Positions 243-15,673 of a stretch of 16,043 nt of DNA are shown in pieces (the first letter of the stretch is position 1; the number at the start of each line of letters is the position of its first letter). Origin of the DNA: Desulfobacteraceae bacterium 4572_19 (GTDB lineage Bacteria; Desulfobacterota; Desulfobacteria; Desulfobacterales; NBLS01). The stretch spans positions 1 through 16,043 of the forward strand of contig NBLS01000008.1 in NCBI GenBank assembly GCA_002084385.1. The letters run 5' to 3'. Under the pieces are notes generated by a model. That model was not told where the DNA came from and searched no databases. It saw nothing but the letters and a program-made list of their open reading frames with translations. The translations under genes and the position numbers were made by a program.

Positions 243-786
243 ATGCCTTTGCCAGGACAACCTAAAATTTGCCACATTTTGCATTACGACAAACTTGCTT
301 TTGTCATTAATGACGGTTTCCTTCAGCCATCCAGATTTATATGTTGGAAATTGTGTGCCATTCTATTTTTGACCTCGTTCAATTATGTTATATTTACTAC
401 ATATGAAAAATCATGAACTCACATATAAAGGTGGACAAGAACCGATTATTCACTTAGTTGCAGACCTTAAGCAAACGATCAATTGGGCAAATAGGAATGG
501 TAAAAGATGGGTGTTTTCTACAAGCAATGCCGGTTCATATTATTTTGAAGATTATTGTGATCTTAAAGATTTAAATAAAATTAACTGGAACGTCATTAAC
601 GAAACACAATGGGCAAACTGTAAAGAAGAGAAACAAGCTAAATTCTTAATTGAAGATCAATTCCCTTGGAAATTAGTGGAACAAATCGGTGTTATATCTC
701 CTCAATATTTCAGAATAGTTAATCAAATATTAACTCACACAAAATACCAACCACCAGTCAACGTGAAACCTAAATGGTATTATTAA
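243..786 (+). pseudogene. darT: DarT-type DNA ADP-ribosyltransferase toxin, decayed
   Basis: DarT transfers ADP-ribose from NAD+ to thymidine in DNA and is countered by DarG. The N-terminus starts at ATG 243 (MPLPGQPKICHILHYDKLA, a DarT-like opening) and is readable to about 321. Homology resumes in another frame at about 328 (HPDLYVGNCVPFYF) and then meets a TGA at 370-372. That codon lies where I recall DarT proteins having Cys (FYF-C-PRS). The frame continues through SYKGGQEP-like and SNAGSYYFED motifs to KWYY and a TAA. Compared with a usual length of about 210 residues, roughly 30 residues are missing at the frame change, a region that in characterised DarT includes an active-site Arg. 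The conserved KQAEFL motif, thought to hold the catalytic Glu, reads KQAKFL here. Three independent lesions make a functional toxin very unlikely. The darG remnant begins 15 nt downstream, as in intact darTG operons. Family assignment is from memory of the motifs. Confidence 0.82.
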
Positions 787-2520: not shown

Positions 2521-2537
2521 TTGTAAGCGTTCACAAC
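2521..2537 (+). repeat. Family A end fragment
   Basis: TTGTAAGCGTTCACAA matches the 5' end of full family A elements, but the rest of the element does not follow. It is either a truncated insertion or a solo end, and a family C half-hairpin comes 34 bases later. Confidence 0.55.
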
Positions 2538-2595: not shown

Positions 2596-2656
2596 AAATA
2601 TTTTTTTTACAGCCTACATAAAAGTTCTTGATTTTATATGTAGTATAAAATATAGT

Positions 2657-2812
2657 AACCGTTCACGACCATGAAATGTGATTTTTCGGTAATCTCACAT
2701 TTGTAAGCGTTCACAAGTGCCCTATATTCGCATAAACAGCTTGGCATATAATAGTTGTCCTATATATGACAAGCTGTTTATGACAAAATATAAAAGAAAG
2801 CATAAGTGTTAG
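2657..2812 (-). repeat. Family A element, copy 1, right arm eroded
   Basis: In reverse orientation it starts AACCGTTCACGACCATG, then has the small hairpin (AAATGTGA...TCACATTT), then GTAAGCGTTCACAAGTGCC and the long palindrome with AGCTTGGCATATA...TATATGACAAGCTG. After GTTTATG the final arm is badly diverged (ending CATAAGTGTTAG instead of GAACGCTTAC). No clear flanking duplication is visible, consistent with an old copy. Confidence 0.75.
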
Positions 2813-2942
2813 AAAGTTATTTGTGTAACGGTCTATAAGATTGTTACTTTACGAATTTTATATATTCGTCATTTTATGTATTCGTCATGGGGGGAGGACT
2901 GCCCACCACAACAAAACTCTTTCAGTTTAACAAAGGTTTTTT

Positions 2943-3245
2943 ATGTTTATTGTTGCAAATTTTTTACAGGCATTAGCTGTTATTCTAGATTATGGACTTA
3001 CTTTTTATATGTGGATAATTATTGCAAGAGCTGTACTTTCATGGGTAAATCCGGATCCATATAATCCTATTGTTCGTTTTATCAATAATACAACTGAACC
3101 TGTGCTTTACAGGTTAAGACAACTTATTCCGGCAAGCTATGGTGGTATTGATTTTTCGCCTATTATTGTAATATTAGTTATTATTTTTTTACAACAATTT
3201 GTAGTAAACAGCTTAATTATGGCTTCTCAAAAAATGTTTATGTAA
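2943..3245 (+). CDS. yggT: YggT-family membrane protein
   Basis: The 100-residue product has two hydrophobic blocks (about residues 4-34 and 71-92) separated by the signature loop LSWVNPDPYNPIVRFINNTTEPVLYRLRQ-like region. The W-NP-P and TEP-L-R motifs are typical of YggT (CcmB-like, Pfam YGGT) proteins. These small integral membrane proteins are found beside DivIVA/SepF or proC genes and have been linked to cell-envelope or division-site functions and, in E. coli, to osmotic tolerance; the exact role is unsettled. An AAAGG site at 2933-2937 precedes the ATG. The next + strand gene encodes a DivIVA-domain protein, the neighbour commonly seen in Deltaproteobacteria, but here a 300-base repeat-filled gap separates them. 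Confidence 0.9.
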   Translation: MFIVANFLQALAVILDYGLTFYMWIIIARAVLSWVNPDPYNPIVRFINNTTEPVLYRLRQLIPASYGGIDFSPIIVILVIIFLQQFVVNSLIMASQKMFM

Positions 3246-3270
3246 ATAATACCTTGTTCTATCGAAATGT

Positions 3271-3424
3271 TGTAAGCGTTCACAAGCACCTCGTCTTCAC
3301 ATAAACAGCTGTCATATATAGGATAACTATTACATAACAAACTGTTTATGCGAATATAAGGCACTTGTGAACGCTTATAAATGTGAGATTACCGAAAAGT
3401 CATATTTCTTGTTCGTGAACGGTT
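3271..3424 (+). mobile_element. Family A element, copy 2, with near-perfect 9-bp flanking duplication
   Basis: This 154-bp element starts TGTAAGCGTTCACAAGCACC and ends GTTCGTGAACGGTT. Its flanks are TCGAAATGT (3262-3270) and TCGAAATAT (3425-3433), identical at eight of nine positions, which is what a 9-bp target duplication with one later change would look like. Inside, a long imperfect palindrome (arms of about 45 bases around a short loop near 3320) is followed by a small hairpin TGTGAGATTACCGAAAAGTCATA. No coding capacity is visible, so it must be non-autonomous. Confidence 0.75.
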
Positions 3425-3434
3425 TCGAAATATT

Positions 3435-3482
3435 TTATATGAAAGTCCATGAAAAATCTGTATTATAAAGACTTTCATAAAA
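3435..3482 (+). repeat. Family B repeat, copy 2, truncated
   Basis: It keeps the first stem-loop (TATATGAAAGTCCATG ... AAGACTTTCATA) but lacks the second half found in full copies. It lies directly against the family A element, with the likely target duplication in between. Confidence 0.65.
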
Positions 3483-3545
3483 AATTTAGGGATGTCTGCC
3501 TGAATTTTGATGTGAACCCTTAAAAAAACATAGAATGGAGATTTT

Positions 3546-4046
3546 GTGCTACTCACCAGTGCCAAGATTCAACAACAACAATTTAAAACCAGATTTAGAG
3601 GTTTTGACGTTCAAGAAGTTGATCTGTTTCTTGAACATATTGCTTTAGATATGGATAAATTCTTAAAAGAGAATAATAAACTTAAAGAGAAAAATAAAAG
3701 CCTTGAATTTGAAAATCAAGGTTACAGAAAAAGGGAAGAGTCCTTTAAGAGGATAATGCTCAATACCCAAAAAACCATTGAACAAATGAAAGACAATGCA
3801 AAAAAGTCTGCGGAACTCGTTTTGGCAGAAGCTGAAGTAAGAGCTGAAAAATTATTAAACGGTGCCCATAACAGACTCGCTCAACTTTATAGTGATATTT
3901 CGGAATTAAAACGTCAACGTATGCAAATTGAAGTACAGATACGGTCAGTTATTGATTCTCATACAAAACTGCTTGAAATTGGTAAAGAAGAATCACAACA
4001 GGCGGACGAAATGGATACTACAATTAAACTTTTTAAAAGTAATTAA
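3546..4046 (+). CDS. DivIVA-domain protein
   Basis: The 166-residue product opens with the DivIVA N-terminal module: LTSAKIQQQQFKTRFRGFDVQEVDLFLE (residues 3-30). This carries the FKTRFRGFD-EVD-FL pattern that in DivIVA/GpsB proteins binds curved or septal membrane. The rest is predicted coiled coil (about 31-155) rich in Lys, Glu and Gln. DivIVA proteins form oligomeric scaffolds at poles or septa. The start is GTG at 3546-3548, five bases after GGAG; no in-frame ATG lies near the domain start. yggT upstream and pilT 40 bases downstream are on the same strand, so co-transcription with pilT is likely. A role in polar placement of the pilus motor is an attractive but unsupported idea. Confidence 0.88.
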   Translation: MLLTSAKIQQQQFKTRFRGFDVQEVDLFLEHIALDMDKFLKENNKLKEKNKSLEFENQGYRKREESFKRIMLNTQKTIEQMKDNAKKSAELVLAEAEVRAEKLLNGAHNRLAQLYSDISELKRQRMQIEVQIRSVIDSHTKLLEIGKEESQQADEMDTTIKLFKSN

Positions 4047-4086
4047 GGGTTCGCTTATTATTCGTTTACTTGTTAAAGGATAAAAA

Positions 4087-5169
4087 ATGGCTAAAATAGA
4101 TGCTTTTTTCAAACTGACACATGATCAGGGTGCTTCGGATTTACACCTTATTGCAGGGCAACCTCCGGCATTAAGGTTACATGGAGCAATTGAAAGAATA
4201 AAATATGACACTCTTGATGATGACAACTTAAGAAGTATGTTATATGAAATTACTCCCGAAGAAAAAATTAAAGAGTTCGAAGAGACAGGAGATATTGATT
4301 TTGCATACGAGATCCCAGGTCTTGCCCGATATAGAGGAAATTATTTTATGCAAAAATATGGTGTAGGAGCAGTATTTAGAGAAATTCCTTCTGAAATCCT
4401 TACATCAGAGCAGTTAGGTCTTCCCGAAGTAATATCCCAATTAGCAGGACTTCCAAGGGGATTAGTATTAGTTACAGGACCTACCGGCAGTGGAAAGTCA
4501 ACTACTCTTGCAGCTATTATTGATGTGGCAAATTCAACACGAAAAGATCATATTATCACGGTAGAAGACCCTATTGAGTTTGTCCATAAAAGCAAAAAAA
4601 GTATTGTAAATCACAGAGAAGTAGGTCTTCATACAAAAACATTTTCTTCGGCACTCAGGGGAGCTCTTCGTGAGGATCCTGATATTATTCTTGTTGGAGA
4701 GATGAGAGATCTCGAAACAATATCCCTTGCAATTGAAGCTGCATCCACCGGACATCTTGTTTTTGGGACCCTTCATACATCAAGCGCTACTAAAACAATT
4801 GATAGAATAATTGAGGTATTTCCAGCAACAGAACAAGCTCAAATTAGATCTACTCTTTCTGATAGTCTTAAGGCTGTTGTAGCACAAGTTCTTTTTAAAA
4901 GGATCGATAAGGTAGGACGCTGTGCAGCACTTGAAATTTTAATTGCAACGCCTGCTGTACGAAATCTTATAAGAGAATCAAAAATCCATCAAATACCATC
5001 AGCAATCCAAACCGGGAAAAAACTTGGAATGGCGTTTCTTGATGATTCAATTATGGAACTTCATAATAAAGGCTGGATAAGTGCAGAAGAAGCTTACGCA
5101 AAGGCTAATAATAAAACAAAGTTCAAACCCCTTTTATCTGCTCCTCCGGCAGATTTTACTGATGCTTAA
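4087..5169 (+). CDS. pilT: Type IV pilus retraction ATPase PilT
   Basis: PilT is the hexameric cytoplasmic ATPase that depolymerises type IV pili and powers twitching. At 360 residues its length is normal. It has the PAS-like N-terminal domain (about 1-100), Walker A GPTGSGKST (131-139), Asp box VEDPIEF (159-165), Walker B DIILVGEMRD (199-208, catalytic Glu205), His box TGHLVFGTLHT (221-231) and the PilT-specific C-terminal AIRNLIRE-type motif as AVRNLIRE (290-297). Every catalytic element is intact. The start has an AAAGGA site at 4075-4080. It follows the DivIVA-domain gene by 40 bases. No pilin or pilus assembly genes are in the window, so the rest of the machine lies elsewhere. Confidence 0.96.
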   Translation: MAKIDAFFKLTHDQGASDLHLIAGQPPALRLHGAIERIKYDTLDDDNLRSMLYEITPEEKIKEFEETGDIDFAYEIPGLARYRGNYFMQKYGVGAVFREIPSEILTSEQLGLPEVISQLAGLPRGLVLVTGPTGSGKSTTLAAIIDVANSTRKDHIITVEDPIEFVHKSKKSIVNHREVGLHTKTFSSALRGALREDPDIILVGEMRDLETISLAIEAASTGHLVFGTLHTSSATKTIDRIIEVFPATEQAQIRSTLSDSLKAVVAQVLFKRIDKVGRCAALEILIATPAVRNLIRESKIHQIPSAIQTGKKLGMAFLDDSIMELHNKGWISAEEAYAKANNKTKFKPLLSAPPADFTDA

Positions 5170-5202
5170 ATTCTCTTAAAAATAGCATTCGCAAAGATTT
5201 TA

Positions 5203-5289
5203 ATATAACTTGCCATGACAAATGATACGCCACAACAAAAAATGAAAGTCTTTGTATGTAATATAGCTTTTCTATGGACTTTCATATAA
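5203..5289 (-). repeat. Family B repeat, copy 3, abutting a ribosome site
   Basis: A full copy in reverse orientation: TATAACTTGCCATGACAAAT, then GATACGCCACAACAAAAAATG, then TATGGACTTTCATATAAAA. Its last bases run into AAAGGA, the ribosome site of the next gene, so the 5' untranslated region of the second PilT-like gene is essentially this repeat. Confidence 0.75.
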
Positions 5290-5302
5290 AAGGATAATTA
5301 CC

Positions 5303-6463
5303 ATGAAAAAGCAGGAAATTGATCATATCTTAATAAGAATGCTTAATTCACACCCCAACGTTTCTGACCTTAATCTTACAGTGGGCAAACCTCTTCAGGT
5401 AGAATCTTCAGGCGAGCTTATGCCTGTAATTATGAAGCCTGATTTTAATATTCTTACACCTTTTCAAACAGAAGTTTTTGCACTTACTCTTATAAATGGT
5501 GACCACAGGCTTACAGAAATTCTTATTAAAAATGGTTCTTGCGATCTTTCATATAGCCTTGGTACTAAAGCACGTTTCAGGGTAAATATTTTTTCCCAAT
5601 CGGGAAAATATTCTATTATCATGAGAAAACTTGAAACGAAAATCCCCACTATTAAAGAATTAAATCTCCCTGAACCATTTTTTAAAATGGCTCGGGAAAA
5701 AAATGGAATTATTTTTGTAACAGGCTCAACAGGCTCTGGAAAATCCACATCTCTTGCCGGAGTGCTCAATGAAATAAATGAAGAAAAATCTGTACATGTA
5801 ATAACCTTGGAAGACCCCATTGAATTTCAGCACCCCCAAAAAAAAGCTACATTTAATCAACGGGAACTCGGTAGTGATTTTGATTCATTTGCCAATGGAC
5901 TACGTGCAGCACTAAGGCAAGCTCCAAAAATAATTCTTGTTGGTGAAATGCGAGACAGAGAGACGGTTGAAATAGGTTTAAGTGCTGCAGAAACTGGCCA
6001 CCTTGTGGTCTCGACCTTGCATACAGTTAATGCCGGTCAAACCATAAATCGAATATTAGGGATGTTTAACACTGACGAAGAGAGACAAATTCGAATCCGG
6101 CTTGCCGATACAATAAGATGGATTGTATGCCAAAAACTTCTTCCTAAAAAAGGAGGTGGTAGAGTTGCTGCTTTTGAAATACTTGCTACAAATCTAAGGG
6201 TTCAAGATTCTATTCTAAATGGTGAATCAGAAGGTAAAACTTTTTACGATATTATTCAGGATGGCAAAATAGTTGGTATGACGACTTTTGACGACTATAT
6301 AATAAGTCTTTACAAACAAAATCTTATTACCGAAAACATAGCCATGGCATATGCATCCCGCAAGGGTGTTGTAGGCAGGGGGCTTGACTCTATTAAAAGT
6401 TCAAGAGGGGAATCCACCACAAATATTCAATCTTTAGAAATTGACCTTGAATATAAAACGTAA
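5303..6463 (+). CDS. Divergent PilT/PilU-like ATPase
   Basis: A second retraction-type ATPase of 386 residues, probably an accessory (PilU-like) or specialised paralogue of the neighbouring pilT. It has Walker A GSTGSGKST (141-149), Asp box LEDPIEF (169-175), Walker B IILVGEMRD (210-218, Glu215) and His box TGHLVVSTLHT (231-241). It departs from PilT at two places: the usual REDPD ahead of Walker B reads RQAPK, and the AIRNLIRE motif is replaced by LRVQDSILNGE (298-308). The latter motif is needed for retraction by PilT, so this protein may act only alongside PilT in a mixed or stacked motor, as proposed for PilU; that is inference. The C-terminus is extended and Ser-rich. An AAAGGA site precedes ATG 5303. 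A 133-base gap holding a family B repeat separates it from pilT. Confidence 0.9.
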   Translation: MKKQEIDHILIRMLNSHPNVSDLNLTVGKPLQVESSGELMPVIMKPDFNILTPFQTEVFALTLINGDHRLTEILIKNGSCDLSYSLGTKARFRVNIFSQSGKYSIIMRKLETKIPTIKELNLPEPFFKMAREKNGIIFVTGSTGSGKSTSLAGVLNEINEEKSVHVITLEDPIEFQHPQKKATFNQRELGSDFDSFANGLRAALRQAPKIILVGEMRDRETVEIGLSAAETGHLVVSTLHTVNAGQTINRILGMFNTDEERQIRIRLADTIRWIVCQKLLPKKGGGRVAAFEILATNLRVQDSILNGESEGKTFYDIIQDGKIVGMTTFDDYIISLYKQNLITENIAMAYASRKGVVGRGLDSIKSSRGESTTNIQSLEIDLEYKT

Positions 6464-6554
6464 TTGTATTTTATTTAATTTATCACTAATTTTATTGGTT
6501 TTTATTTTTTATAAATAATTTCTGCCGTGAAATTTAAAACAAGATACATGTAAT

Positions 6555-6637
6555 TTTATATGAACGTCCATAGAAAATCTATATTATAAAGACTTTCATT
6601 TTTTGTTGTGGCGTATTATCCGCCATGGCAAGTTATA
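6555..6637 (+). repeat. Family B repeat, copy 4
   Basis: This is the cleanest full copy: TATATGAACGTCCATAGAAA, AAGACTTTCATTTTTTGTTG, then TGGCGTATTATCCGCCATGG and CAAGTTATA. Both stem-loops are visible (TGAACGTC/GACTTTCA with one mismatch, and TGGCG/CGCCA). It ends 31 bases before the ATG of the zinc-ribbon/receiver gene. Confidence 0.8.
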
Positions 6638-6668
6638 TTATAAAAACTTCGCTGTAAAAGGAAATACT

Positions 6669-7301
6669 ATGAATGTTGTATGTAATAATTGCCAAAGCAG
6701 GTTTAATATCCCATCTGATAAAATCCCTTCAGGAACAAAAACATCTTTTACCTGTCCGAAATGCAAAAACACAATAACAATAAATAAAACCGTGAATCAT
6801 GCGTCAGAACCAGAATCGTCAAAAAAAGACTTATTAAAAAATGATTTTTTTAATCTTCCTAACGAAGGGAAAAGTGCCCTTATATGCGAATCCAATCCCA
6901 TATTAAAGCAAGAAATTATAAATGCTATAAATAAATTAGATTATCATAATATTGAAGCTACAAATGCCGATGATGCAATAAAAAAAATACGTTATCACCC
7001 TTTTGATCTTATTGTTATTAATGAAAAATTTGGTAAATCCAATCCCGATTCAAATCAACCTTCTGAAGATGCAATAACAGATTTTTTACGTCAAATGAAT
7101 ATGGTCGAAAGGCGTAATATATTTATTGCATTAATAAGCGACACACTTCGCACCATGGATAATATGGAAGCTTTATGTCAAAGCGTTAATGTTATAATAA
7201 ACGTAAATGATATTAAAAATATTGGTAATACTTTATCACGTACAATAGGCGAACATATTGCACAATATAAAGTTTTTAAAGATTTAATGGGGAAAAGATA
7301 A
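6669..7301 (+). CDS. MJ0042-type zinc ribbon with degenerate receiver domain
   Basis: The 210-residue product starts MNVVCNNCQSRFNIPSDKIP and has a CxxC pair at Cys5/Cys8 and a second at Cys29/Cys32, the MJ0042-type zinc ribbon common at the N-termini of Deltaproteobacterial regulatory proteins. A polar linker (about 36-65) leads to a receiver-like domain (about 67-190): ALICESNPILKQEIINAI, then PFDLIVINEKF, where the residue normally serving as phospho-acceptor Asp is Asn118. It is therefore probably a pseudo-receiver that works by protein contact rather than phosphorylation. The start is ATG 6669 with AAAAGGA at 6657-6662. A longer frame from 6603 would begin inside a family B repeat and lacks a ribosome site, so I reject it. 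Its place after the two PilT genes suggests a motility or polarity role, but this is only context. Confidence 0.82.
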   Translation: MNVVCNNCQSRFNIPSDKIPSGTKTSFTCPKCKNTITINKTVNHASEPESSKKDLLKNDFFNLPNEGKSALICESNPILKQEIINAINKLDYHNIEATNADDAIKKIRYHPFDLIVINEKFGKSNPDSNQPSEDAITDFLRQMNMVERRNIFIALISDTLRTMDNMEALCQSVNVIINVNDIKNIGNTLSRTIGEHIAQYKVFKDLMGKR

Positions 7302-7304
7302 ATG

Positions 7305-7353
7305 TAAATGTGAAATCACCGAAACATCACATTTTTTGTTCGTGAACAATTAC
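7305..7353 (+). repeat. Family A 3'-end fragment between convergent genes
   Basis: Only the small hairpin (AAATGTGAAATCACCGAAAC and TCACATTT) and the terminal TTGTTCGTGAACAATTAC of family A are present. It begins four bases after the zinc-ribbon gene's stop and lies 20 bases from the end of the convergent DHH gene. The hairpin plus T-run could serve as a transcription terminator for one or both genes. Confidence 0.65.
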
Positions 7354-7372
7354 AGATAAATATTATTGGGTT

Positions 7373-8257
7373 TTACTGATTTTTATTTAAAATATCTAAC
7401 ATTTCTGAAATATAAAGTGTTGATTTATTTGCAGGAAAACTGCACCCTCCGGCACCAAAATGTCCGCCTCCATTGTATTGTGAAAGCATCTGCCCTATAT
7501 TCACCTTGCATTTTTTATTAAAAATATTATGCCCAACACTTAAATTTACTCTATTTTGATCATGTTCATCAAATCGAATTTTCATGCTTACCAAAGTTGT
7601 GGGATACATGGAATATACCATAAAACGATTGCCTGAAGGAGGCGTACTAAATTTACGAAGATCAATAACTGATACATTGCCGTTAATATTAGTATGCTTC
7701 TTTAAAATTTCTTTATACTCACTGTTTTCTTTAATTACCTTATCACATCGTTTTTTTACTTCCGGAATTTCAAGTATCTGATAAATATTATATTTTCCAA
7801 GAAGCTCCACAAGTAAATTCCAGTAATCCAAGTCACCTGCACCCCTATTGGTAATGGTCATGGAAAGTAGCATATATGGATATTTTTCAGGATATTGTAC
7901 CTCATCCATGGAAAGAAGTGCCGCATCAATTCTATCAGTCTCTTCTATCAGTTCATCATAATTTTCCTTAAGTCCATCTTTATAATAATTATATACGATA
8001 CCGGCAGCTGATGGTGCTACTTTAAAATCTCCCGGGAACGAAGTTGCTCTTTGGTTGGATATATGGTGATCAAACCATTTGGAACATCTATCATCAAATG
8101 GAAGATTAGCAATAATATCACCTTTTTTAATTTCAGCATCTCCACTTTGAATATCACCTGGCTCTATCCACTTAACAGGCTCTGTAATTTCTTCCATTTT
8201 TTGAATAATAACGGCACAAACAACGCCGTCAAAATCTGGTCTTGTTACAATTCGCAT
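7373..8257 (-). CDS. DHH-family phosphoesterase
   Basis: The 294-residue product belongs to the DHH/DHHA1 metal-dependent phosphoesterases (relatives of NrnA nanoRNase, cyclic-dinucleotide phosphodiesterases and exopolyphosphatase). Metal ligands are visible in RPDFDG (Asp8 and Asp10), the NLPFDDR stretch (51-57) and WFDHH (Asp63-His64-His65). The C-terminal DHHA1 nucleotide-binding domain carries YNGGGHFGAGG (261-271). The substrate cannot be told from sequence; NrnA-like proteins are of similar size, but the DHD of the first motif is DFD here. The start ATG has AAAAGGA upstream on the minus strand. It is monocistronic and convergent with the zinc-ribbon gene. Confidence 0.87.
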   Translation of the reverse strand: MRIVTRPDFDGVVCAVIIQKMEEITEPVKWIEPGDIQSGDAEIKKGDIIANLPFDDRCSKWFDHHISNQRATSFPGDFKVAPSAAGIVYNYYKDGLKENYDELIEETDRIDAALLSMDEVQYPEKYPYMLLSMTITNRGAGDLDYWNLLVELLGKYNIYQILEIPEVKKRCDKVIKENSEYKEILKKHTNINGNVSVIDLRKFSTPPSGNRFMVYSMYPTTLVSMKIRFDEHDQNRVNLSVGHNIFNKKCKVNIGQMLSQYNGGGHFGAGGCSFPANKSTLYISEMLDILNKNQ

Positions 8258-8283
8258 GTTAATTTTCCTTTTATAAGTGTATT

Positions 8284-8330
8284 AAGGGTTCACAAAAAAA
8301 ATAAATTGTATTTATTGTTTGGTGAACCCA
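8284..8330. repeat. Family C hairpin GGGTTCAC...GTGAACCC
   Basis: It is an inverted repeat with GGGTTCAC and GTGAACCC outer arms and AT-rich inner arms (AAATAAATTG and TATTTATTG), 27 bases upstream of the DHH gene. Half copies occur at 2571-2595 and about 3512-3521. The GTTCAC core is shared with family A ends, which suggests a related origin or a common binding protein. Confidence 0.6.
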
Positions 8331-8435
8331 TATTTATCAAATACCGGTATTATACTTTAAATGTACAGAGAACTTCAAGAAAATAATTTACATGTATAAT
8401 ATAAACCTTTACAAATTATGTCTTAAACTATATTT

Positions 8436-8514
8436 TATAGGAAAGTCTATAAAAAGGCTGTATTATAAAACTTTTATTTTTTATTGTGATGTACTATCTG
8501 TCATGACAAGTTAT
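8436..8514 (+). repeat. Family B repeat, copy 5
   Basis: A full but diverged copy: TATAGGAAAGTCTATAAAAA, AAACTTTTATTTTTTATTGT, GATGTACTATCTGTCATGAC, AAGTTATA. It is followed after nine bases by a family A element. Confidence 0.7.
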
Positions 8515-8523
8515 ATGAAAATT

Positions 8524-8677
8524 CATAAGCGTTCACAAGCACCTCGTCTTCGCATAAACAGCTTGTCATATATAGGACAACTGTTATATGGTCAAGCGTT
8601 TATGCGAATATAAGAACTTGTGAACGCTTACAAATGTGAGATTACCGAAAAATCACATTTCTTGTTCGTGAACGGTT
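8524..8677 (+). repeat. Family A element, copy 3, apparently nested in family B
   Basis: The 154-bp copy runs from CATAAGCGTTCACAAGCACC to GTTCGTGAACGGTT, with a nearly intact long palindrome and small hairpin. Left of it is TATATGAAAATTCA, the start of a family B unit. Right of it is ATAACTTTCATTTCTTGTTA, the middle of one. The element therefore appears to sit inside a second family B copy. A clear 9-bp duplication is not visible. Confidence 0.75.
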
Positions 8678-8680
8678 ACC

Positions 8681-8728
8681 AATAACTTTCATTTCTTGTT
8701 ATGCGTCACTTCACAATGACAGTTATAC
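8681..8728 (+). repeat. Family B repeat, 3' portion
   Basis: AACTTTCATTTCTTGTTATG followed by CGTCACTTCACAATGACAGT and TATA matches the second half of family B. Its missing first half corresponds to the TATATGAAAATTCA just left of the family A element. Confidence 0.6.
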
Positions 8729-8780
8729 AGTGCGTTAAGAGATTATACTATAAACCGAATTTATTTACATTGAGAACCGA

Positions 8781-11084
8781 ATGCAAAATGACTCACAAAC
8801 ACCAAAGGGTTGCATAGATGGTCCATATCCTCTTTTTGGAAAAATTGCTTTAAAGTATCGGACTATTACACGGGAACAGTTAGAAAAAGCGACGGTTATT
8901 TTTAATGAAAAATATAAAAATAACCCTGAGTTTCCGTTTAGTAAAGTTCTGATTGAAGAAAATATGGCATCAACTGATCAGATTGATCTTCTTCAGGTGA
9001 TACAAGAGTATTGGGATGCACGTTTTGCAGGAGAAAAATTTGGATCGCTGGCTATTAGCAAAGGGTATTTAAGCCAAAAGGATATCACCTTTGCCCTAAA
9101 AATACAAAAACGTGAATTTTTTTCAAAAAAAATAAACCAGCGTATAGGTGATATTCTTGTTGATCAGGGTATTTTAACTGATGCACAATGTAGCGAGATT
9201 ATTGCTGAACAAACAAAAACGCAGGCTCCTTCTTTGCCAAAGGAAGAGTCCGGTGCAATACCTGTAAATGATCCAAATTTTTTAGATGAAAATGAAGCCG
9301 GAATTACAGACCTTGAAAGACAATATCGTAAAACATTAAATAGGGATAGAAGTTTTATTGAAATAGCGATAAGTAAAGGGTTTACATCCCAATTAGAAAT
9401 TGACAGGGCTCTTCTTAAGCAGGAGATGGAATATACAATTCGAAAGTTACTACGAACAATTAATGAAATTTTAATTGAGGAGAAACATATAACCGAGAAA
9501 CAGTGTGATGAAGTCTTTGAAGTGCTTAAACAAAAAATAAATAAAAAAACAGATTCTTCAGATGTTTCTATGGAACATCTAAGAGATTTTATTAAAATAG
9601 TTGTATCTGAAGATAAATTATCAGCTTATATTCAAATAAAAAAAGATATTAAAGATAAAGTTTCTGTTGCATTTATAAAAGGTCTAATTGACGAAAAAAA
9701 AATTACGCTTGGGGTTATTGATAAACAGAAAATAGCAGATTTTATTAAAAATGGATTATCTGCATTAAGTACACTGAAAATTGCACAAGGTATAAGACCT
9801 CAGACGGTAAATGATATATCTGTAGATTATTTATTTGAATCAAATGGAGTTGCAGGTAAAAAAACCAGTGGTAAACCACCCTCGGTAATAAAAGGTGATA
9901 CCATTGCCAAATTAGAGCAAATGATCCAAGGGATGCCCGGAAAAGACATTTTTGGAAATATGATAGCTCCTCCTCCTTTAGCTGATGCTTCGTTAATGTG
10001 CGGAAATGGTGTCAGGCTGGCAAATAATAAAAAAACATTGATTGCGTCTATTAGTGGAACACCTTGTAAAACACTTGACGGTAAATTTAATGTTTTTTCA
10101 AAAACTATAATTCACGAAGATGCAGATGTTCGAACAGGTCCTATAAAAGGCAAAACAAATATATATATTGCAGGTACATTAACCGGAGCTTTTCCTGTTA
10201 GTGGAGGCACCCTTTCAGCTAATGAAATAAGAGGTGCAAATGCAAAATTAACTGGTGATGTAACAATCGCCACCGGAATTACAGATGCTGTTATTGTAAC
10301 ACAGGGAAATGTATCGGCAAAATATATATTAAATTCCAAAATTTCAGCTTTTTTAGATGTAACTGTCGAAAATGAAATTATTGACTCGACTGTGCTTACA
10401 AGTGGAAAGTGCAAAGTTGAAAAAAGTAGAATTCTTGCATCTGATATTACTGCAAAAAAAGGTGTATTCGCTGTTGGTATCGGTAGCAATGGTACACAAG
10501 CATGCAATATAACAGTGGGAACCGAAGGACATATTCAAAGTGAAATTAATAAAATAGATACTTCGATTTATAAATTGCGGAGTAAGTTAGATGATAAAGA
10601 GAATAAAAAAAGTGAATTTAAAGCTCTAAGGGATAAAATAAATAAAAAAACAAAAAAATTAAATGCAATTAATTCAAAGGCAGGGAAAATTTTAACATCT
10701 TTGCAAAAACAAACACAAAACGATAAAACAAAATCTTTAATAGAAGAAGTAACTGCAAAGAAAGATGAAACTATTGTATCCTTAAAAAAATTGGGAAAAG
10801 AAAAAAAATCTGTTGGGAAAAAAATTATAAAAATTACAAAACTCATTGAGACGATAAGCCCGGGCATTCAATTAGCGATAGTAAAGTTACAGAAAAAAAA
10901 GGAAGTATTTCTTGATTGGGCAAAAAATAAACAAGGGATTCCGGAAATAAGAGTTACGGGGCAGGTTAAGAAAGGCACTCTGTTTAATGGTTTAAATGCT
11001 ACGGTAACTATTGATGAAGATTGTAAAAACATATTATCTAAGGAAGTTAAGAATCAAGAAGAGATGGTAGTAATTAAAAAATAA
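8781..11084 (+). CDS. FapA-family (DUF342) protein with N-terminal repeat modules
   Basis: The 767-residue protein has three related helical modules before the FapA core. Each has the pattern FG-LAI-KGxLTxxDIxxALxxQ followed by IGEILxxxxxITxxQxxEIxxxQ, at about residues 19-78, 87-145 and 192-252; they resemble the small repeats seen in MshE/GspE N-terminal-like regions. The DUF342/FapA part spans about 340-590: GMPGKDIFGNMI (384-395) marks the domain, followed by a Gly/Val-rich right-handed beta-helix with GDVTIATGI and GHIQSEI. A long Lys/Glu coiled coil (about 588-710) and a short beta tail (about 720-745) close it. FapA-type proteins are widespread in Deltaproteobacteria and are of uncertain function, with suggested roles in polar or pilus assembly. 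It is cytoplasmic, with no signal peptide. The ribosome site is weak (TTGAGAA). The proximity to pilus genes is suggestive only. Confidence 0.85.
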   Translation: MQNDSQTPKGCIDGPYPLFGKIALKYRTITREQLEKATVIFNEKYKNNPEFPFSKVLIEENMASTDQIDLLQVIQEYWDARFAGEKFGSLAISKGYLSQKDITFALKIQKREFFSKKINQRIGDILVDQGILTDAQCSEIIAEQTKTQAPSLPKEESGAIPVNDPNFLDENEAGITDLERQYRKTLNRDRSFIEIAISKGFTSQLEIDRALLKQEMEYTIRKLLRTINEILIEEKHITEKQCDEVFEVLKQKINKKTDSSDVSMEHLRDFIKIVVSEDKLSAYIQIKKDIKDKVSVAFIKGLIDEKKITLGVIDKQKIADFIKNGLSALSTLKIAQGIRPQTVNDISVDYLFESNGVAGKKTSGKPPSVIKGDTIAKLEQMIQGMPGKDIFGNMIAPPPLADASLMCGNGVRLANNKKTLIASISGTPCKTLDGKFNVFSKTIIHEDADVRTGPIKGKTNIYIAGTLTGAFPVSGGTLSANEIRGANAKLTGDVTIATGITDAVIVTQGNVSAKYILNSKISAFLDVTVENEIIDSTVLTSGKCKVEKSRILASDITAKKGVFAVGIGSNGTQACNITVGTEGHIQSEINKIDTSIYKLRSKLDDKENKKSEFKALRDKINKKTKKLNAINSKAGKILTSLQKQTQNDKTKSLIEEVTAKKDETIVSLKKLGKEKKSVGKKIIKITKLIETISPGIQLAIVKLQKKKEVFLDWAKNKQGIPEIRVTGQVKKGTLFNGLNATVTIDEDCKNILSKEVKNQEEMVVIKK

Positions 11085-11087
11085 ATG

Positions 11088-11103
11088 TCCCTTGTCAAGT
11101 ATT
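11088..11103 (+). repeat. 16-bp direct repeat, left copy
   Basis: TCCCTTGTCAAGTATT occurs here, directly after the FapA-family stop, and again identically at 11467-11482. Between the copies lie a family A element, tRNA-Gly and a family B element. Confidence 0.8.
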
Positions 11104-11106
11104 CGT

Positions 11107-11260
11107 AACCGTTCACAAACAAGAAATGTGATCTTTCGGTAATCTCACATCTGTAAGTGTTCATAAGTGCCTTCTATTCGCATAAACAGCTTGTCATATA
11201 ATAGTTGTCCTATATATGATAAGCTGTTTATGTGAAGATAAGGTGCTTGTGAACGCTTAC
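11107..11260 (-). repeat. Family A element, copy 4
   Basis: In reverse orientation: AACCGTTCACAAACAAGAAA, the small hairpin, GTAAGTGTTCATAAGTGCC, the long palindrome, and a GAACGCTTAC end. The flanking nonamers AGTATTCGT and TGTATCCTT agree at only six of nine positions, too weak to call a target duplication. It ends 21 bases from the 3' end of the tRNA-Gly gene and could help end FapA-family or tRNA transcripts. Confidence 0.78.
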
Positions 11261-11281
11261 TTGTATCCTTTATGTTACAAA

Positions 11282-11356
11282 TGGAGCGGGAAACGAGATT
11301 TGAACTCGCGACTTCGACCTTGGCAAGGTCGCACTCTACCACTGAGTTACTCCCGC
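11282..11356 (-). tRNA. tRNA-Gly (anticodon GCC)
   Basis: The 75-base gene includes an encoded CCA. Acceptor arm GCGGGAG pairs with the 3' TTCCCGC (one G-U), followed by discriminator U and CCA. The D arm is AACTCAGTGGTAGAGTG, the anticodon stem CGACC/GGTCG closes a TTGCCAA loop with anticodon GCC at 11322-11324, and the T arm GCGAGTTCAAATCTCGT is standard. It reads GGC and GGU glycine codons. A family B repeat whose AAGTTATAAA end could act as a -10-like box lies 24 bases upstream of its 5' end. Confidence 0.97.
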
Positions 11357-11380
11357 CCAATAATTCGTCCTTTCCAGCTT

Positions 11381-11463
11381 TATAACTTGCCATGGCGAGT
11401 AATAACGCCACAACAAAAATGAAAACCTTTGTACTAAAACTTCGCTATGGACTTTCATATAAA
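11381..11463 (-). repeat. Family B repeat, copy 6
   Basis: A full reverse copy: TATAACTTGCCATGGCGAGT, AATAACGCCACAACAAAAAT, TATGGACTTTCATATAAAA. The GGCGAGTAATAACGCC stem is perfect. It sits between tRNA-Gly and the second 16-bp direct repeat. Confidence 0.78.
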
Positions 11464-11466
11464 ATA

Positions 11467-11482
11467 TCCCTTGTCAAGTATT
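11467..11482 (+). repeat. 16-bp direct repeat, right copy
   Basis: The second identical copy of TCCCTTGTCAAGTATT, 379 bases downstream of the first and 14 bases from the end of the dppDF gene. Read on the minus strand it contains TTGACA, which could be a -35 element for tRNA-Gly, although no well-placed -10 follows. Confidence 0.8.
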
Positions 11483-11495
11483 TTTTGGTGTATCC

Positions 11496-13424
11496 TTATA
11501 CATTATGACATGAAATTTGACGACCTTTAAAAGTTTTCAGTTCCGGTCGTTTTTCAGTACATTTTTTTGTCATAATTGAGCAGCGTTTATGAAAAGCACA
11601 TCCTGATGGCGGATCAAGTGGAGAAGGAAGTTCTCCGTCAAGATGTATTTTCTTTTCACGATTATCTTTATATACTCGTGGGGTTGCTGCAAGTAAGGCT
11701 TTGGTGTAGGGGTGTAAAGGATTTTTAAAAATCACCTCTTTGGGCCCCTGTTCTACCGGTCTGCCAAGATACATAACCATTAAATCATCTGCGATATGAC
11801 GTACAACACTTAAATCGTGGGAAATAAAAAGATAAGAAAGATTCATCTCTTCCTGAAGATCCATTAACAGGTTTAAAGCCTGAGCCTGAACAGATACGTC
11901 CAATGCAGATACTGGCTCATCTGCTACGATAAGTGATGGTTTTAACATAAGTGCTCTGGCGATTGCTACTCGTTGACGCTGACCACCGGAAAACATATGG
12001 GGATATCTACTGTATTGTTCTTTTGTCATACCAACTTTTTCCATCATCTCTAAAACTTTTTTTCGTCGTTCAGCAGCTGTAAGGTTGGTATTGATTTTTA
12101 ATGGTTCCTCAAGAATTGTTCCAATTTTTTTTCTTGGATTCAGCGAACCATAGGGATCTTGAAAAATAATTTGAACACGGCTTCGAAGTTGTTTTAATAA
12201 GGCTTTATCTTTTGTTGAAGTGTCTTTTGTTGTTAAAGCATTAATGCCTTCAAGATAAAAATCACCTGAAGTTGGTTTTTCTATCATAGTGATTAAACGG
12301 GCAAGCGTTGATTTTCCACATCCTGATTCACCCACAACCGCAAGTGTTTTACCTGTTTGAATTTTAAAAGATACACCGTCAAGTGCTTTTAGATCAACAT
12401 TTCCTGTGAAAAAACCACCTTTGCGTACCTTATAATATTTAGTAAGGTCATTTGCTTCTATTATCAGATTGTTATCATTGCCAAGTGGAAAATGACATCT
12501 AATTACACCATTCCCATCCTGCTTTAATTCAGGGGGAGTATTTTTACATTTATCTGTTGAAAATTTACAACGGGGGTTAAATAAACAACCCGAAGGTCTA
12601 TTATATTTTCCCGGAACCACTCCAGAAATGGTAGGTAGCCTGTTATTTCCTATACTTTTTTCAGGAAGTGCATCTAACAGGGCGGATGTGTATGGATGTC
12701 TGGGATTTTTAAATATTTCATAGGCAGAATGCTGTTCTACCACCTGGCCCGCATACATTACAATTACCTGTTCTACAGTCTCTGCAACAACTGCCATATC
12801 GTGAGTAATCAAGATAAGTGCCATATTGTTTTTTTGCTGAAGGTCAAGAAGCAGATCAAGGATTTGTGCTTGTATGGTAACATCTAATGCAGTTGTTGGT
12901 TCATCGGCAATTAAAAGACGAGGGTTACAAGCAATTGCCATAGCAATCATTACTCGCTGGTTCATTCCTCCAGAAAGTTGATGGGGAAAATTTTTCAATC
13001 TTTTTCCGGCCACTGGAATTCCAACTTGATCAAGCAGTTCAATAGTCCTTTTTTTTCTTTCGGTAGAACTTCCACCTTCATGGACTTTCAAAGCCTCCAT
13101 AATCTGGTAACCCACTGTAAAGCAAGGGTTTAAGCTCGTCATTGGTTCCTGAAAAATCATTGAAATTTCTTTGCCGGTTATTTTACGACGCTTTTTTTCA
13201 GGCAAGCTTAAAAGATCAGTATTGTTAAAAGATAATTTTTGGGCTTTAATTATTCCAGGGTAAGGTATAAGACCCATTAAAGCAAGTTGGGTAACACTTT
13301 TGCCGGAACCAGATTCTCCGACTATACCAGTTACCTCTCCCTCATTAAGGGTAAGGCTCACATCATCAACAGCTTTAAAGCCGTCAAAATCAACAGATAG
13401 TTTATTTATTTCAAGTAATGACAT
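11496..13424 (-). CDS. Fused DppD-DppF-type peptide transporter ATPase
   Basis: The 642-residue protein contains both ATPase halves of a dipeptide/oligopeptide importer. Half one: Walker A GESGSGKS (36-43), signature LSGGMNQR (150-157), Walker B LLIADEP (170-176) and HD switch THDM (207-210). Half two: Walker A GESGCGKS (365-372), FSGGQRQR (478-485), LIVADEP (498-504), SHDL (535-538). Each half ends with the peptide-transporter C-terminal domain (RHPYT...GC-F-P-RC...KC...C) and keeps four cysteines (280, 286, 293, 310 and 609, 615, 622, 639), which in DppD/DppF relatives bind an iron-sulfur cluster. It drives import of peptides through DppB/DppC. The ATG overlaps the dppC stop (TAATG), showing translational coupling. 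The catalytic motifs look intact. Confidence 0.95.
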
Positions 13425-14323
13425 TATCGTTTCATCTTTGGATCTAAAGCATCCCGAAGTCCATCTCCGGCAAGGTTAAAAGCAAGAACTGTAAATAAAA
13501 TAGCAAGTCCGGGAAAAGTTACAACCCACCATGCACGCTGTACAAATTGAAGTGCATTAGCAAGCATTGCCCCCCATTCAGGAGTTGGCGGCTGTGCCCC
13601 CATTCCTAAAAAACCAAGGGCAGCAGCATCTAATATTGCAGTTGAAAAACCAAGTGTTGCCTGTACAATTAAAGGTGCCATACAGTTAGGAAGAATTACC
13701 TTAAACATTAAACGAAAAGCCCCTGCACCACTTACACGAGAAGCTGTAACGTAATCTTTGTTTTTTTCAGAAATAGCGGACGCACGGGTTAATCTAACGT
13801 AATGAGGCAGCACAACTATGGCAATGGCAAGAATTGCATTTTTAAGGCTTGGTCCCAAAATGGCAACTATTGCCATTGCAAGAAGCAAGCTTGGAATTGC
13901 CAGCATTACATCCATAATTCTCATAACTATTGTCTCAAAGGGTCTTCCAAAATAACCGGATGTTATACCAAGAATAATACCGGTTGCAAGTGAGATGGTT
14001 ACAACAATAACGCCTACAAATAAACTTAATCTTGCCCCATACATAAGACGCGACATCATATCACGACCAACATCATCAGTTCCGAGGGGATACGTCCAGA
14101 CACCACCTTCCATCCATACAGGAGGAGTTAAAATTGCATCTCGATACTGCTCAAATGGATTGTGGGGAGCAAGAAAATTAGCAAATATTGCCACCAATAC
14201 TATAAATATTATAAAAAGAAGCCCTGCAACAGCTCCTTTATTTTCACTAAAATATTGCCAGAATTCTTTTAATGGATGTGGTGCAACCGTACTTTGCATT
14301 GGTATGGTTTCTGAATTTATCAT
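13424..14323 (-). CDS. dppC: Dipeptide/oligopeptide transporter permease DppC
   Basis: The 299-residue inner-membrane permease has a first membrane helix at about 31-52, the [20 protein letters not shown] segment (81-100), further helices to about 285 and the EAA coupling loop around [23 protein letters not shown] (174-196) that docks on the ATPase. It ends [14 protein letters not shown], typical of DppC/OppC. It should pair with DppB to form the pore, but the upstream dppB is truncated. The ribosome site is weak (AAGAAAG about 12 bases upstream). A promoter at 14415-14444 would give a leader of about 85 bases. It is translationally coupled to the fused ATPase gene downstream. Confidence 0.95.
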
Positions 14324-14414
14324 AAAATCATTATCTTTCTTACTTCAATAAACAACAATATAAATTTAATTTTATTGGAATATTATTAATAACATTCTCA
14401 CACATAAACGACGC

Positions 14415-14444
14415 AACATAACTTTAATTTATTTATTTTGTCAA
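14415..14444 (-). promoter_or_regulatory. Sigma-70-type promoter upstream of dppC
   Basis: A minus-strand consensus -35 TTGACA (14439-14444) and a -10 TATGTT (14415-14420) are 18 bases apart, in AT-rich DNA about 90 bases before the dppC start. The -35 box overlaps the stop of the toxin stub. It may drive dppC-dppDF independently of the interrupted upstream genes. Confidence 0.5.
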
Positions 14445-14491
14445 GGACAATAATTATTAGTATCAATAAGGGTATCAAGGAGAATATTCAT
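14441..14491 (-). pseudogene. Possible 5' stub of a PIN-domain (VapC-like) toxin
   Basis: Starting two bases after the antitoxin stop, ATG 14489-14491 opens a 16-codon frame MNILLDTLIDTNNYCP followed by TGA. MNILLDT is the standard opening of VapC-type PIN toxins, whose first Asp is catalytic, and its position is exactly where the toxin gene follows a Phd/YefM antitoxin. The other 120 or so residues are absent. The match is only seven residues, so confidence is limited. Confidence 0.45.
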
Positions 14492-14493
14492 AT

Positions 14494-14748
14494 TTACTCT
14501 GGAAAAATTGGTAAATTATAGAAACGATCAAAAGTTTCTTCATCAGTATCATTAAAATCATTAGAAATTTCCACATTGCCCTCCCAACTTCCACCCAGCT
14601 GACGTGGAAATTTGTTTTCTTTAAAAGCCGACAAAATAGCAACTGGTTTTCCTGCTTTACCTATAACCACGGATTGATTTGTTTCTTGAACTGTTTTTAT
14701 CAAATATGACAAATTAGCTTTTACATCAGATATATTAGTAATTTGCAT
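14494..14748 (-). CDS. Phd/YefM-type antitoxin, toxin partner missing
   Basis: The 84-residue protein has the Phd/YefM DNA-binding fold: MQITNISDVKANLSYLIKTV (a typical I-EAK-LS-LI opening) and SVVIGKAGKPVAIL (26-39, the G-P-A-L strand). A C-terminal tail rich in acidic and aromatic residues (ISNDFNDTDEETFDRFYN) would wrap the toxin. Such antitoxins repress their own operon and neutralise PIN or RelE toxins; the GSWEG-DFDE-type tail is characteristic of those paired with VapC. The start has an AAGGGA ribosome site six bases upstream. Only a 16-codon stub follows where the toxin should be. A family A element lies 20 bases upstream and may have cut the gene from its own promoter. Confidence 0.85.
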   Translation of the reverse strand: MQITNISDVKANLSYLIKTVQETNQSVVIGKAGKPVAILSAFKENKFPRQLGGSWEGNVEISNDFNDTDEETFDRFYNLPIFPE

Positions 14749-14768
14749 AACAAATCCCTTATTCTTTG

Positions 14769-14922
14769 GGAAGCGTTCACAAGCACCTCATCTTCGCATA
14801 AACAGCGTGTCATATATAGGACAACTATTATATGCCAACCGTTTATGCGAATATAAGGCACTTGTAAACGCTTACAAATATGAGATTACCGAAAAATCAC
14901 ATTTCTTGTTTGTAAACGGTTA
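14769..14922 (+). mobile_element. Family A element, copy 5, with perfect 9-bp flanking duplication
   Basis: This 154-bp copy runs from GGAAGCGTTCACAAGCACCT to TTTGTAAACGGTTA. It is flanked by identical TATTCTTTG at 14760-14768 and 14923-14931, the clearest target duplication in the window. The element separates the antitoxin gene from DNA upstream and supplies the last few codons and the stop of the truncated dppB frame. Confidence 0.8.
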
Positions 14923-15484
14923 TATTCTTTGTAATATAGCATCTGTTAGAATATAGTTTGATTACTAACAATAATACATTAAATTTAATTACAGGTGTCC
15001 ATCCCAAATGAACTGAAAAAAACAGGATCAATAATAATCCCCACCAGAAGATTGGCATTGAGTATCCGGTAAGGGAAACGCCCATAACCGAATGGTCAAA
15101 TACAGTACCTCTTTTGACACCTGCAATAATTCCGGCAGGCAATCCTAATAAAATGGCAAAAATTATGGCACAAAATCCAAGCTCTAATGTAGCAGGGAAA
15201 AGAGTCATAAACTCTTTAAATACCGGTTGTCTGGTAACATAGGATGTGCCAAGGTCACCGTGCATAACCTTATTTATATAGCTAAGATATTGAATATAAA
15301 TTGGTTTATCTAATCCCATTTTAGCCTTTAGGGCAGCATGCCTTGCGGGGTCTATTCCGCGTTCTCCTGCAAGAAGTTCCACAGGATCACCTGGGATAAG
15401 ATGAATTAGGGTAAAAGTAAGTAGAGTAACCCCTATAAAGGCCGGAATAATTTGAATCAAACGTTTAAAAAAAAACTGAATCAT
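14897..15484 (-). pseudogene. dppB: Truncated permease gene dppB
   Basis: DppB is one of the two permease subunits of the peptide importer. The frame starts normally (MIQFFFKRLIQIIPAFIGVT, first helix at 9-30; HLIPGDPVELLAGERG; GDLGTSYVTRQPV at 76-88; PATLELGFCAIIFAILLG). It reads as a good DppB through about residue 165 (YSMPIFWWGLLLILFFSVHLGWTPV). After that the sequence is unrelated, lysine- and tyrosine-rich, and ends at a TGA inside a family A element after 195 residues instead of roughly 310-340. The last helices and the EAA coupling loop are missing. The breakpoint is near 14990, and the missing part is not found before dppC. The protein cannot be a working permease. A misassembly over repeats is the main alternative. 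Confidence 0.85.
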
Positions 15485-15521
15485 AATTTTATTTTTTGCG
15501 GTTGTTTATAAATAAATTTGT

Positions 15522-15673
15522 AAACGTTCACGAACAAGAAATGTGATTTTTCGGTAATCTCACATTTGTAAGCACTCACAAGTGCCTTATATTTGCATAA
15601 ATAGCTTGGCATATAATAGTTGTCCTATATATGACAAGCTGTTTATGCGAAATGAGGTATTGTGAACGCTTAG
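15522..15673 (-). repeat. Family A element, copy 6
   Basis: A reverse-orientation copy of about 152 bp: AAACGTTCACGAACAAGAAA, the small hairpin, GTAAGCACTCACAAGTGCC, the long palindrome, and a GTGAACGCTTAG end. It faces copy 5, so the dppB fragment lies between two inverted elements about 600 bases apart. The flanks are too AT-rich to judge a duplication. Confidence 0.75.

What the first reader, a model, noticed from the sequence alone, without database searches (positions are those of the whole stretch)
2657..15673. A 154-bp palindromic element (family A) in six dispersed copies
Six full-length or near-full-length copies (2657, 3271, 8524, 11107, 14769, 15522) plus two fragments (2521, 7305) occur in 13 kb, in both orientations and always between genes. 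Four copies measure 154 bp when delimited the same way. The architecture is unusual: the GTAAGCGTTCACAAG end motif occurs once at the 5' end, once inverted in the interior (CTTGTGAACGCTTAC), closing a hairpin of about 110 bp, and once as a variant at the 3' end (GTTCGTGAACGGTTAC) after a second small hairpin. This is a two-hairpin element with three copies of its end motif. I know of no named family with this structure. It may be the non-autonomous passenger of an undescribed transposon or a recognition site for a host protein.
Basis: seen in the sequence. Interest (0 to 1): 0.85.

Follow-up and report, generated by a model that had tools for sequence, protein, structure and literature searches.

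The report
Three-ended IS66-type miniature transposon
The repeated palindromes are copies of a tiny jumping DNA element without a gene of its own, part of a kin group found in many sulfate-reducing bacteria, probably moved by the enzyme of a known transposon family (IS66), and unusual in having three end motifs and a fold that is better on one strand than on the other.

Summary
The repeats are real: five full-length copies (154-156 bp), one truncated copy, one 50-bp derivative and one end fragment. Delimited as GTAA...TTAC, three of six testable copies have 8-bp target duplications (8/8, 8/8, 7/8). They are a non-autonomous mobile element. In other Desulfobacterales genomes I found IS66-family elements (ISBst12-like, one ~475-aa transposase, ~1.57 kb) with the same end motif and 8-bp duplications (15 of 17 copies in one genome), and two further subfamilies of the same plan: motif, 50 bp, motif, ~108-bp hairpin, motif. 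In 47 such copies the outer motifs bound a duplication of at least 7/8 in 28; the inner boundary in 0 of 58. Profiles built from either side find the other (E 1.6e-5, 1.1e-7). The hairpin is strand-asymmetric: transition mismatches are G-U rather than A-C on one strand (28 v 8 positions), and that strand folds better in 74 of 75 copies, across subfamilies with unlike interiors. This suggests selection on RNA or single-stranded DNA. Not shown: a partner transposase in the window's own genome, actual transposition, or a function; many element-bearing genomes show no IS66 transposase. Nine literature searches of an open-licence library listed no description.

The parts
3272..3426 (-). full-length copy (strand = the one on which the 48-bp end module comes first); duplication GAAATGTT 3264-3271 / GAAATATT 3427-3434, 7/8
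8525..8679 (-). full-length copy; flanks match 3/8, no recognisable duplication
14769..14923 (-). full-length copy; duplication ATTCTTTG 14761-14768 / 14924-14931, 8/8
11105..11260 (+). full-length copy; flanks match 5/8
15520..15673 (+). full-length copy; flanks match 4/8
2655..2787 (+). copy with intact end module and inner motif, far end lost
7304..7353 (-). 50-bp derivative: end module only, between exact AGATAAAT repeats (7296-7303 / 7354-7361), 8/8
2523..2537 (+). solitary end motif GTAAGCGTTCACAAC

Best explanation
Family A is a miniature gene-less transposon, moved in trans by an IS66-family (ISBst12-like) transposase. The enzyme uses the outer end motif of the 48-50 bp end module and the inverted motif at the far tip of the hairpin, and inserts the whole 154-160 bp unit with an 8-bp target duplication. 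Shown by sequence: the unit, its ends, the duplications, the matching ends of autonomous IS66 elements. Inferred: that this enzyme does it. The third, inner motif is not seen to act as an end; it pairs with the far end motif and closes a ~107-bp hairpin. Why the hairpin does not move alone is unknown. The hairpin is also kept better folded on one strand, for a reason not known.
For: Window duplications 8/8, 8/8, 7/8 in 3 of 6 copies, chance about 7e-8. Same plan in other genomes: 47 of 58 fetched copies keep the outer motif, of which 28 have duplications of at least 7/8 (19 exact) against 54 of 2116 mismatched flank pairs; inner boundary 0 of 58. Second subfamily with exact duplications in L250 and L255. 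IS66 elements with this end motif (0-4 mismatches) and exact 8-bp duplications: L220, L224, L151, L228, L132, and 15 of 17 copies in G331. IS and element together in G331, G328, G168. Profiles each way: E 1.6e-5, 1.1e-7.
Against: No genome is held for the window, so a partner IS66 there is unproven. No PF03050 transposase in 9 of 17 and 5 of 8 genomes searched, among them some with many copies. Three of six window copies lack a clear duplication. Part of the profile score is the 12-bp end motif itself, which could be shared because the same enzyme needs it. The window subfamily was found in no other genome.
Confidence: 0.82

Rival explanations
1. The element is moved by a transposase of another family that happens to share GTAA...GTTCAC ends and 8-bp duplications.
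For: Fourteen of 25 genomes searched lack a detectable PF03050 transposase (9 of 17, 5 of 8), including G340, G167, G128 and G279, which hold 22, 36, 19 and 3 pattern hits.
Against: The ends and duplications match several separate IS66 elements, three of them in genomes that hold the element. Many of these genomes are fragmented and may miss IS copies. I did not search for other transposases at these ends.
Confidence: 0.1
2. The repeat is primarily a host-useful RNA hairpin or regulatory site that spreads or is kept because of its effect on neighbouring mRNAs, as proposed for NEMIS and ERIC.
For: Strand-asymmetric folding in 74 of 75 copies; paired changes in 11 of 39 pairs; almost only intergenic (37 of 38 places).
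Against: No preference for orientation to genes: upstream neighbour co-directional in 15 of 34, downstream in 18 of 33. Clear transposon hallmarks. No Rfam match.
Confidence: 0.08
3. The strand asymmetry is only descent from three ancestral copies plus mutation bias, without selection.
For: Copies within a subfamily are related; counting all aligned mismatches weakens the skew (30 v 17 distinct in subfamily I, 15 v 7 in the window); in four simple palindromes isolated mismatches were 6 G-U v 1 A-C.
Against: Three subfamilies with unlike interiors lean the same way relative to the end module; II and window have 17 v 0 isolated events; both T-G and G-T changes occur (17 and 13). The four simple palindromes show strand energy differences of only about 0.5-6 kcal/mol, in both directions.
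Confidence: 0.35

Closest known systems
IS66 family, ISBst12 group (ISDge4 in PMC12898284, passages seen; and L264, L151, L220, L224, L228 here)
   Different: They are about 1.57 kb with a ~475-aa transposase; the element has no gene, and a third motif plus a long hairpin
Bacterial MITEs such as RUP of pneumococcus (PMC2229807, section 5 part 1) or MITECca01 (PMC9769881, passages)
   Same: Short, gene-less, mostly intergenic, ends shared with a full-length IS
   Different: RUP is attributed to IS630-Spn1 with TA targets, MITECca01 to an IS982-family element; the passages I read describe two terminal repeats, no conserved third motif
Correia/NEMIS elements of Neisseria (PMC2229807, section 5 part 1)
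   Same: Similar sizes (about 107 and 155 bp, differing by 50 bp), intergenic, RNA hairpin proposed as RNase III target
   Different: There the 50 bp is internal and carries an IHF site; here it is an end module. End sequences not compared by a tool
CIR repeats of Caulobacter (PMC2229807, section 5 part 1)
   Same: Intergenic, two-arm RNA structure joined by a linker
   Different: CIR mobility is said to be unclear; no IS66-type ends or 8-bp duplication is mentioned there

Membership tests
MITE (general) | Short, several copies, no transposase gene | tested here: met
   154-156 bp, five full copies in 16 kb; no ORF of 80 aa or more lies within a copy
MITE (general) | Terminal inverted repeats and target-site duplication | tested here: met
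   3 of 6 window copies at 7/8 or 8/8; 28 of 47 copies elsewhere
MITE (general) | Ends shared with an autonomous element of the same genome | not testable with these tools
   no genome held for the window; met in three relatives' genomes G331, G328, G168
IS66-type ends (ISBst12-like) | Ends begin GTAA (recalled hallmark; seen here on other IS66 elements too) | tested here: met
   variants GTAC, ATAA, GAAA, GGAA occur in single copies
IS66-type ends (ISBst12-like) | 8-bp duplication | tested here: met
IS66-type ends (ISBst12-like) | Movement by the IS66 transposase | not testable with these tools
   needs a transposition assay
Correia/NEMIS | TA target duplication (recalled) | tested here: not met
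   8-bp duplications
REP/REPIN | RAYT transposase and no long duplication (recalled) | tested here: inconclusive
   8-bp duplications argue against; RAYT not searched
Rfam RNA family | Match at gathering score | tested here: not met
   only a tRNA in the window; no match reaching its gathering score in 7 loci

The most novel reading that the evidence does not exclude
The element is both a transposon passenger and a strand-specific nucleic-acid unit: in three subfamilies with unlike hairpin interiors, selection keeps a ~107-nt hairpin on the strand that begins with the end module, using G-U pairs so that the RNA or single-stranded DNA stays folded while the double-stranded DNA is not a perfect, unstable palindrome. 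As copies lie in either orientation to genes, the selected molecule would serve the element itself, for example an element-derived RNA or a single-strand intermediate engaged by the IS66 transposase.
Probability: 0.3. Interest if true: 0.85.

Novelty: new variant of a known kind. Interest (0 to 1): 0.6.

Why it matters
It ties an abundant intergenic repeat of sulfate reducers to a transposase family whose transposition is little studied, with exact ends and duplications that an assay can use. A conserved third motif at a fixed 48-50 bp spacing and a strand-specific fold are not predicted by the usual picture of a MITE. If the fold is selected, a selfish DNA element depends on an RNA or single-stranded form, which can be tested directly.

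Tried and rejected
Rejected: an artefact confined to the window (same plan elsewhere); the 107-bp hairpin as the mobile unit (0 of 58 inner-boundary duplications of 7/8 or better); the small hairpin as a conserved structure; a known Rfam RNA; Correia and REP (see membership). Integron attC sites were considered from memory only and not tested.

Weakened on checking: I first thought that the end module is always of the tnp-3' type of the IS (GGGGT after the motif) and the far end of the other type, so that the hairpin alone lacks one type. That fits L224, L132, L151 and subfamily I, but in L264 (G331) it is the other end that reads GGGGT, and subfamily II and the window modules lack GGGGT. I keep it only as a guess.

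Led nowhere: exact tail pattern in genome contigs and viral contigs (0); blastn in phages and plasmids (no match); blastn of a window copy in 10 and 389 genomes (0; only 2 candidates per genome were scored); architecture pattern in IMG/VR (one hit, L285; no inverted third motif in the stretch shown, judged chance); FapA-like protein to place the host (no close genome); folding and pattern scan for promoters (not above shuffles by much, 10 v mean 6.9).

Rows dropped: one search counts 47 of 58 copies (outer motif at least 9/12; one, L175, has no left flank and counts as no duplication). A2 used 39 of the 58 (mostly those with flanks matching at least 5/8), A3 18 of those plus 5 window copies. 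Searches used 57 of 58 subfamily I copies, 5 of subfamily II and 5 window copies. One search used those 57, copies from 13 of the 30 loci (the four not's set I included subfamily II again) and 5 window copies; the flipped copy L261 was not given to it (1 G-U, 1 A-C). G072 forms two of its 27 groups. One search counted two places twice (L161/L256, L174/L258).
Full report
What is in the window. The window is probably a whole metagenome contig: its FapA-like protein is listed on one contig, 16,043 bases long, and no genome is held for it. The host is tentatively Desulfobacterales-like: PilT is 82% identical to a Desulfobacula MAG (L027) and 77-81% to several Desulfobacterales MAGs, though some Syntrophaceae reach 77-80%. 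With ends set at GTAA...TTAC the five full-length copies are 154-156 bp.

Mobility. Delimited so, the flanking 8-mers match 8/8 (14769-14923, ATTCTTTG), 8/8 (the 50-bp derivative 7304-7353, AGATAAAT), 7/8 (3272-3426), 5/8, 4/8 and 3/8. Random positions 155 bp apart in the window reach 7/8 with frequency 0.0015, so three of six has p about 7e-8. The 7304 copy keeps only the end module inside an intact duplication; in-place loss of the palindrome is the simplest reading (inference; palindromes are known to be deletion-prone, recalled).

Which transposon. The recalled IS66 hallmark (GTAA ends, 8-bp duplication) suggested a search. GTAASCGTTCACRA gave 101 hits in 59 of 389 genomes drawn from the order of G001; the reversed control gave 41 hits in 37 genomes (my counts from the table, 59 is the tool's). 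The enrichment is therefore moderate, but of the 30 loci fetched four showed a palindrome bounded by the motif with an exact 8-bp duplication (L113, L100, L125, L116; a fifth, L097, 6/8). IS66 transposases (PF03050) were then located in three sets of genomes (matches in 12 of 20, 8 of 17, 3 of 8). Elements with the same ends: L220 and L224 (1578 bp, both ends 12/12), L151 (1565 bp), L228 (1560 bp, up to 4 mismatches), L132 (2577 bp, a distant transposase), and 17 copies of a 1564-bp element in G331, 15 of the 17 with exact duplications. The transposases of L264, L151, L228 and L220 are 49-72% identical; L132 about 26%. Other IS66 elements in these genomes have different GTAA ends but also exact 8-bp duplications (for example L126, L127, L154, L218). 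A paper describes an active ISBst12-group element with one ORF, ends GTGACTACTCAGCA / GTAACTGCTCAGCA and an 8-bp direct repeat (PMC12898284, passages only).

The wider family. L116 (genome G340) carries a 159-bp element of the same plan: outer motif, 50 bp, inner motif in the same direction, 109-bp hairpin ending in the inverted motif. blastn with it matched 18 of 116 relatives of G340, at most 7 places scored per genome. Of 58 copies examined 47 keep the outer motif; the module is exactly 50 bp in 38 of 47, the hairpin 109 bp in 30 of 47; duplications reach 7/8 or more in 28 of 47 (8/8 in 19) at the outer boundary, in 0 of 58 at the inner one, and in 54 of 2116 mismatched flank pairs. A pattern blind to the interior, CGTTCACN{32,46}GTAASCGTTYAC, matched 23 of 389 genomes (122 hits by my count; one hit for the reversed control). 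On reading the 30 fetched loci I judge that 14 of the 23 genomes hold the three-motif element and 9 hold other motif pairs (one of the 9, L251 in G048, does end in an inverted motif but has no duplication). A second subfamily (G128, G072, G114, G271; 50 + 107 bp) has a different interior; duplications are exact in L250 and L255, 7/8 in L252 and L262, 6/8 in L233. In L261 (G328) the hairpin is inverted relative to the module and the duplication is perfect, so its orientation is not essential for movement. A shorter three-motif relative is in L016 and a contig-edge copy in L017.

Is the window family part of this? A profile from 39 non-window copies hits all six window copies with E 1.6e-5, 1.3e-4, 9e-4, 0.002, 0.014 and 0.029; the best hit outside family A has E 2.5. 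A profile from the five window copies, run on 284 loci (1.84 Mb, rich in such elements), ranks subfamily II first: L262 E 1.1e-7 and L233 8.3e-7, both over nearly the full length. Part of these scores is the end motif itself, so the claim of common descent rests mainly on the full-length subfamily II matches. I count the window family as a third subfamily (48 + 107 bp). It was found in no other place searched.

Strand asymmetry. In A2, 11 of 39 hairpin pairs have changes on both sides (shuffled mean 4.2, 0 of 500 shuffles as high) and 97.9% of cells pair. To avoid the bias of an RNA folder, the two arms of each hairpin were aligned with a strand-symmetric scheme. Counting every aligned mismatch, G-U exceeds A-C on the module-first strand by 30 v 17 distinct events in subfamily I and 15 v 7 in the window. 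Counting only isolated mismatches within stems: 20 v 8 (I), 6 v 0 (II), 11 v 0 (window), together 37 v 8, p 1.5e-5; merged across families 30 v 8; one vote per position 28 v 8, p 0.0012. Transversion mismatches are as common (37 in the merged count) and do not bear on strand. RNA folding favours the module-first strand in 74 of 75 copies and in the mean of 27 of 27 groups; the exception is window copy 8525 (+0.4 kcal/mol). Window examples: -66.0 v -46.0, -58.0 v -40.6, -51.1 v -51.5 kcal/mol. Controls: four simple palindromes with the same ends differ between strands by about 0.5-6 kcal/mol in both directions; their mismatches are 8 G-U v 11 A-C overall but 6 v 1 when only isolated ones are counted, which counts somewhat against the test. 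Copies within a subfamily are related, so the effective number is small; the weight lies in three subfamilies with unlike interiors leaning the same way. Neighbouring genes show no orientation preference (15 of 34 upstream, 18 of 33 downstream co-directional) and 37 of 38 places are intergenic by a crude ORF criterion, so a role in host mRNAs is not the obvious cause. The mechanism is open.

Weak points. No partner transposase is known in the window's genome. Nine of 17 and 5 of 8 genomes show no PF03050 match; the element and an IS66 with matching ends are together in three (G331, G328, G168). My idea that the two ends must be of different type is contradicted by G331's element and not supported by subfamily II or the window (see Tried and rejected).

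Literature. Nine searches of an open-licence library listed no paper whose title or abstract start describes this element. Seen in part: PMC12898284, PMC9296519, PMC9769881, PMC9208149 (passages), PMC2229807 (outline and section 5 part 1). Two key IS papers were not held, so absence from print is not established.

Noticed in passing
window about 2414-2512, 3432-3478, 5197-5291, 6538-6636, 8432-8518, 11381-11465: A second repeat family (about 85-100 bp, ATGAAAGTC...GACTTTCAT) in both orientations. Family A ends lie 6-11 bp from it at 2523, 3426 and 8525.
   Followed up: partly
window 8283-8333, with similar half-sites near 2586 and 3511: A third small palindrome, GGGTTCACA...TGGTGAACCC.
   Followed up: no
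window 385-786 and 802-1413: DarT-like frame that matches only profile positions 70-201 of 201, followed by a macro-domain (DarG-like) frame with an in-frame TGA at 973-975: looks like a decayed DarTG pair.
   Followed up: no
window 14494-15484: DppB-like permease frame is truncated (PF00528 positions 1-56 of 184), with a family A copy and a Phd/YefM-type antitoxin frame between it and dppC.
   Followed up: no
L261 (genome G328): Subfamily I copy whose large hairpin is inverted relative to the end module, with a perfect 8-bp duplication TATTTTTC.
   Followed up: partly
L016 near 1000-1124; L017 1-124: Shorter three-motif relative (about 125 bp) in the Pseudomonadota MAG CSMAG_1789, and a contig-edge copy in a Desulfobulbaceae MAG.
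   Followed up: partly
L113 1399-1514, L100 1501-1636, L125 1501-1644: Simple two-ended palindromes (116-144 bp) with the same end motif and exact 8-bp duplications in other genomes.
   Followed up: partly
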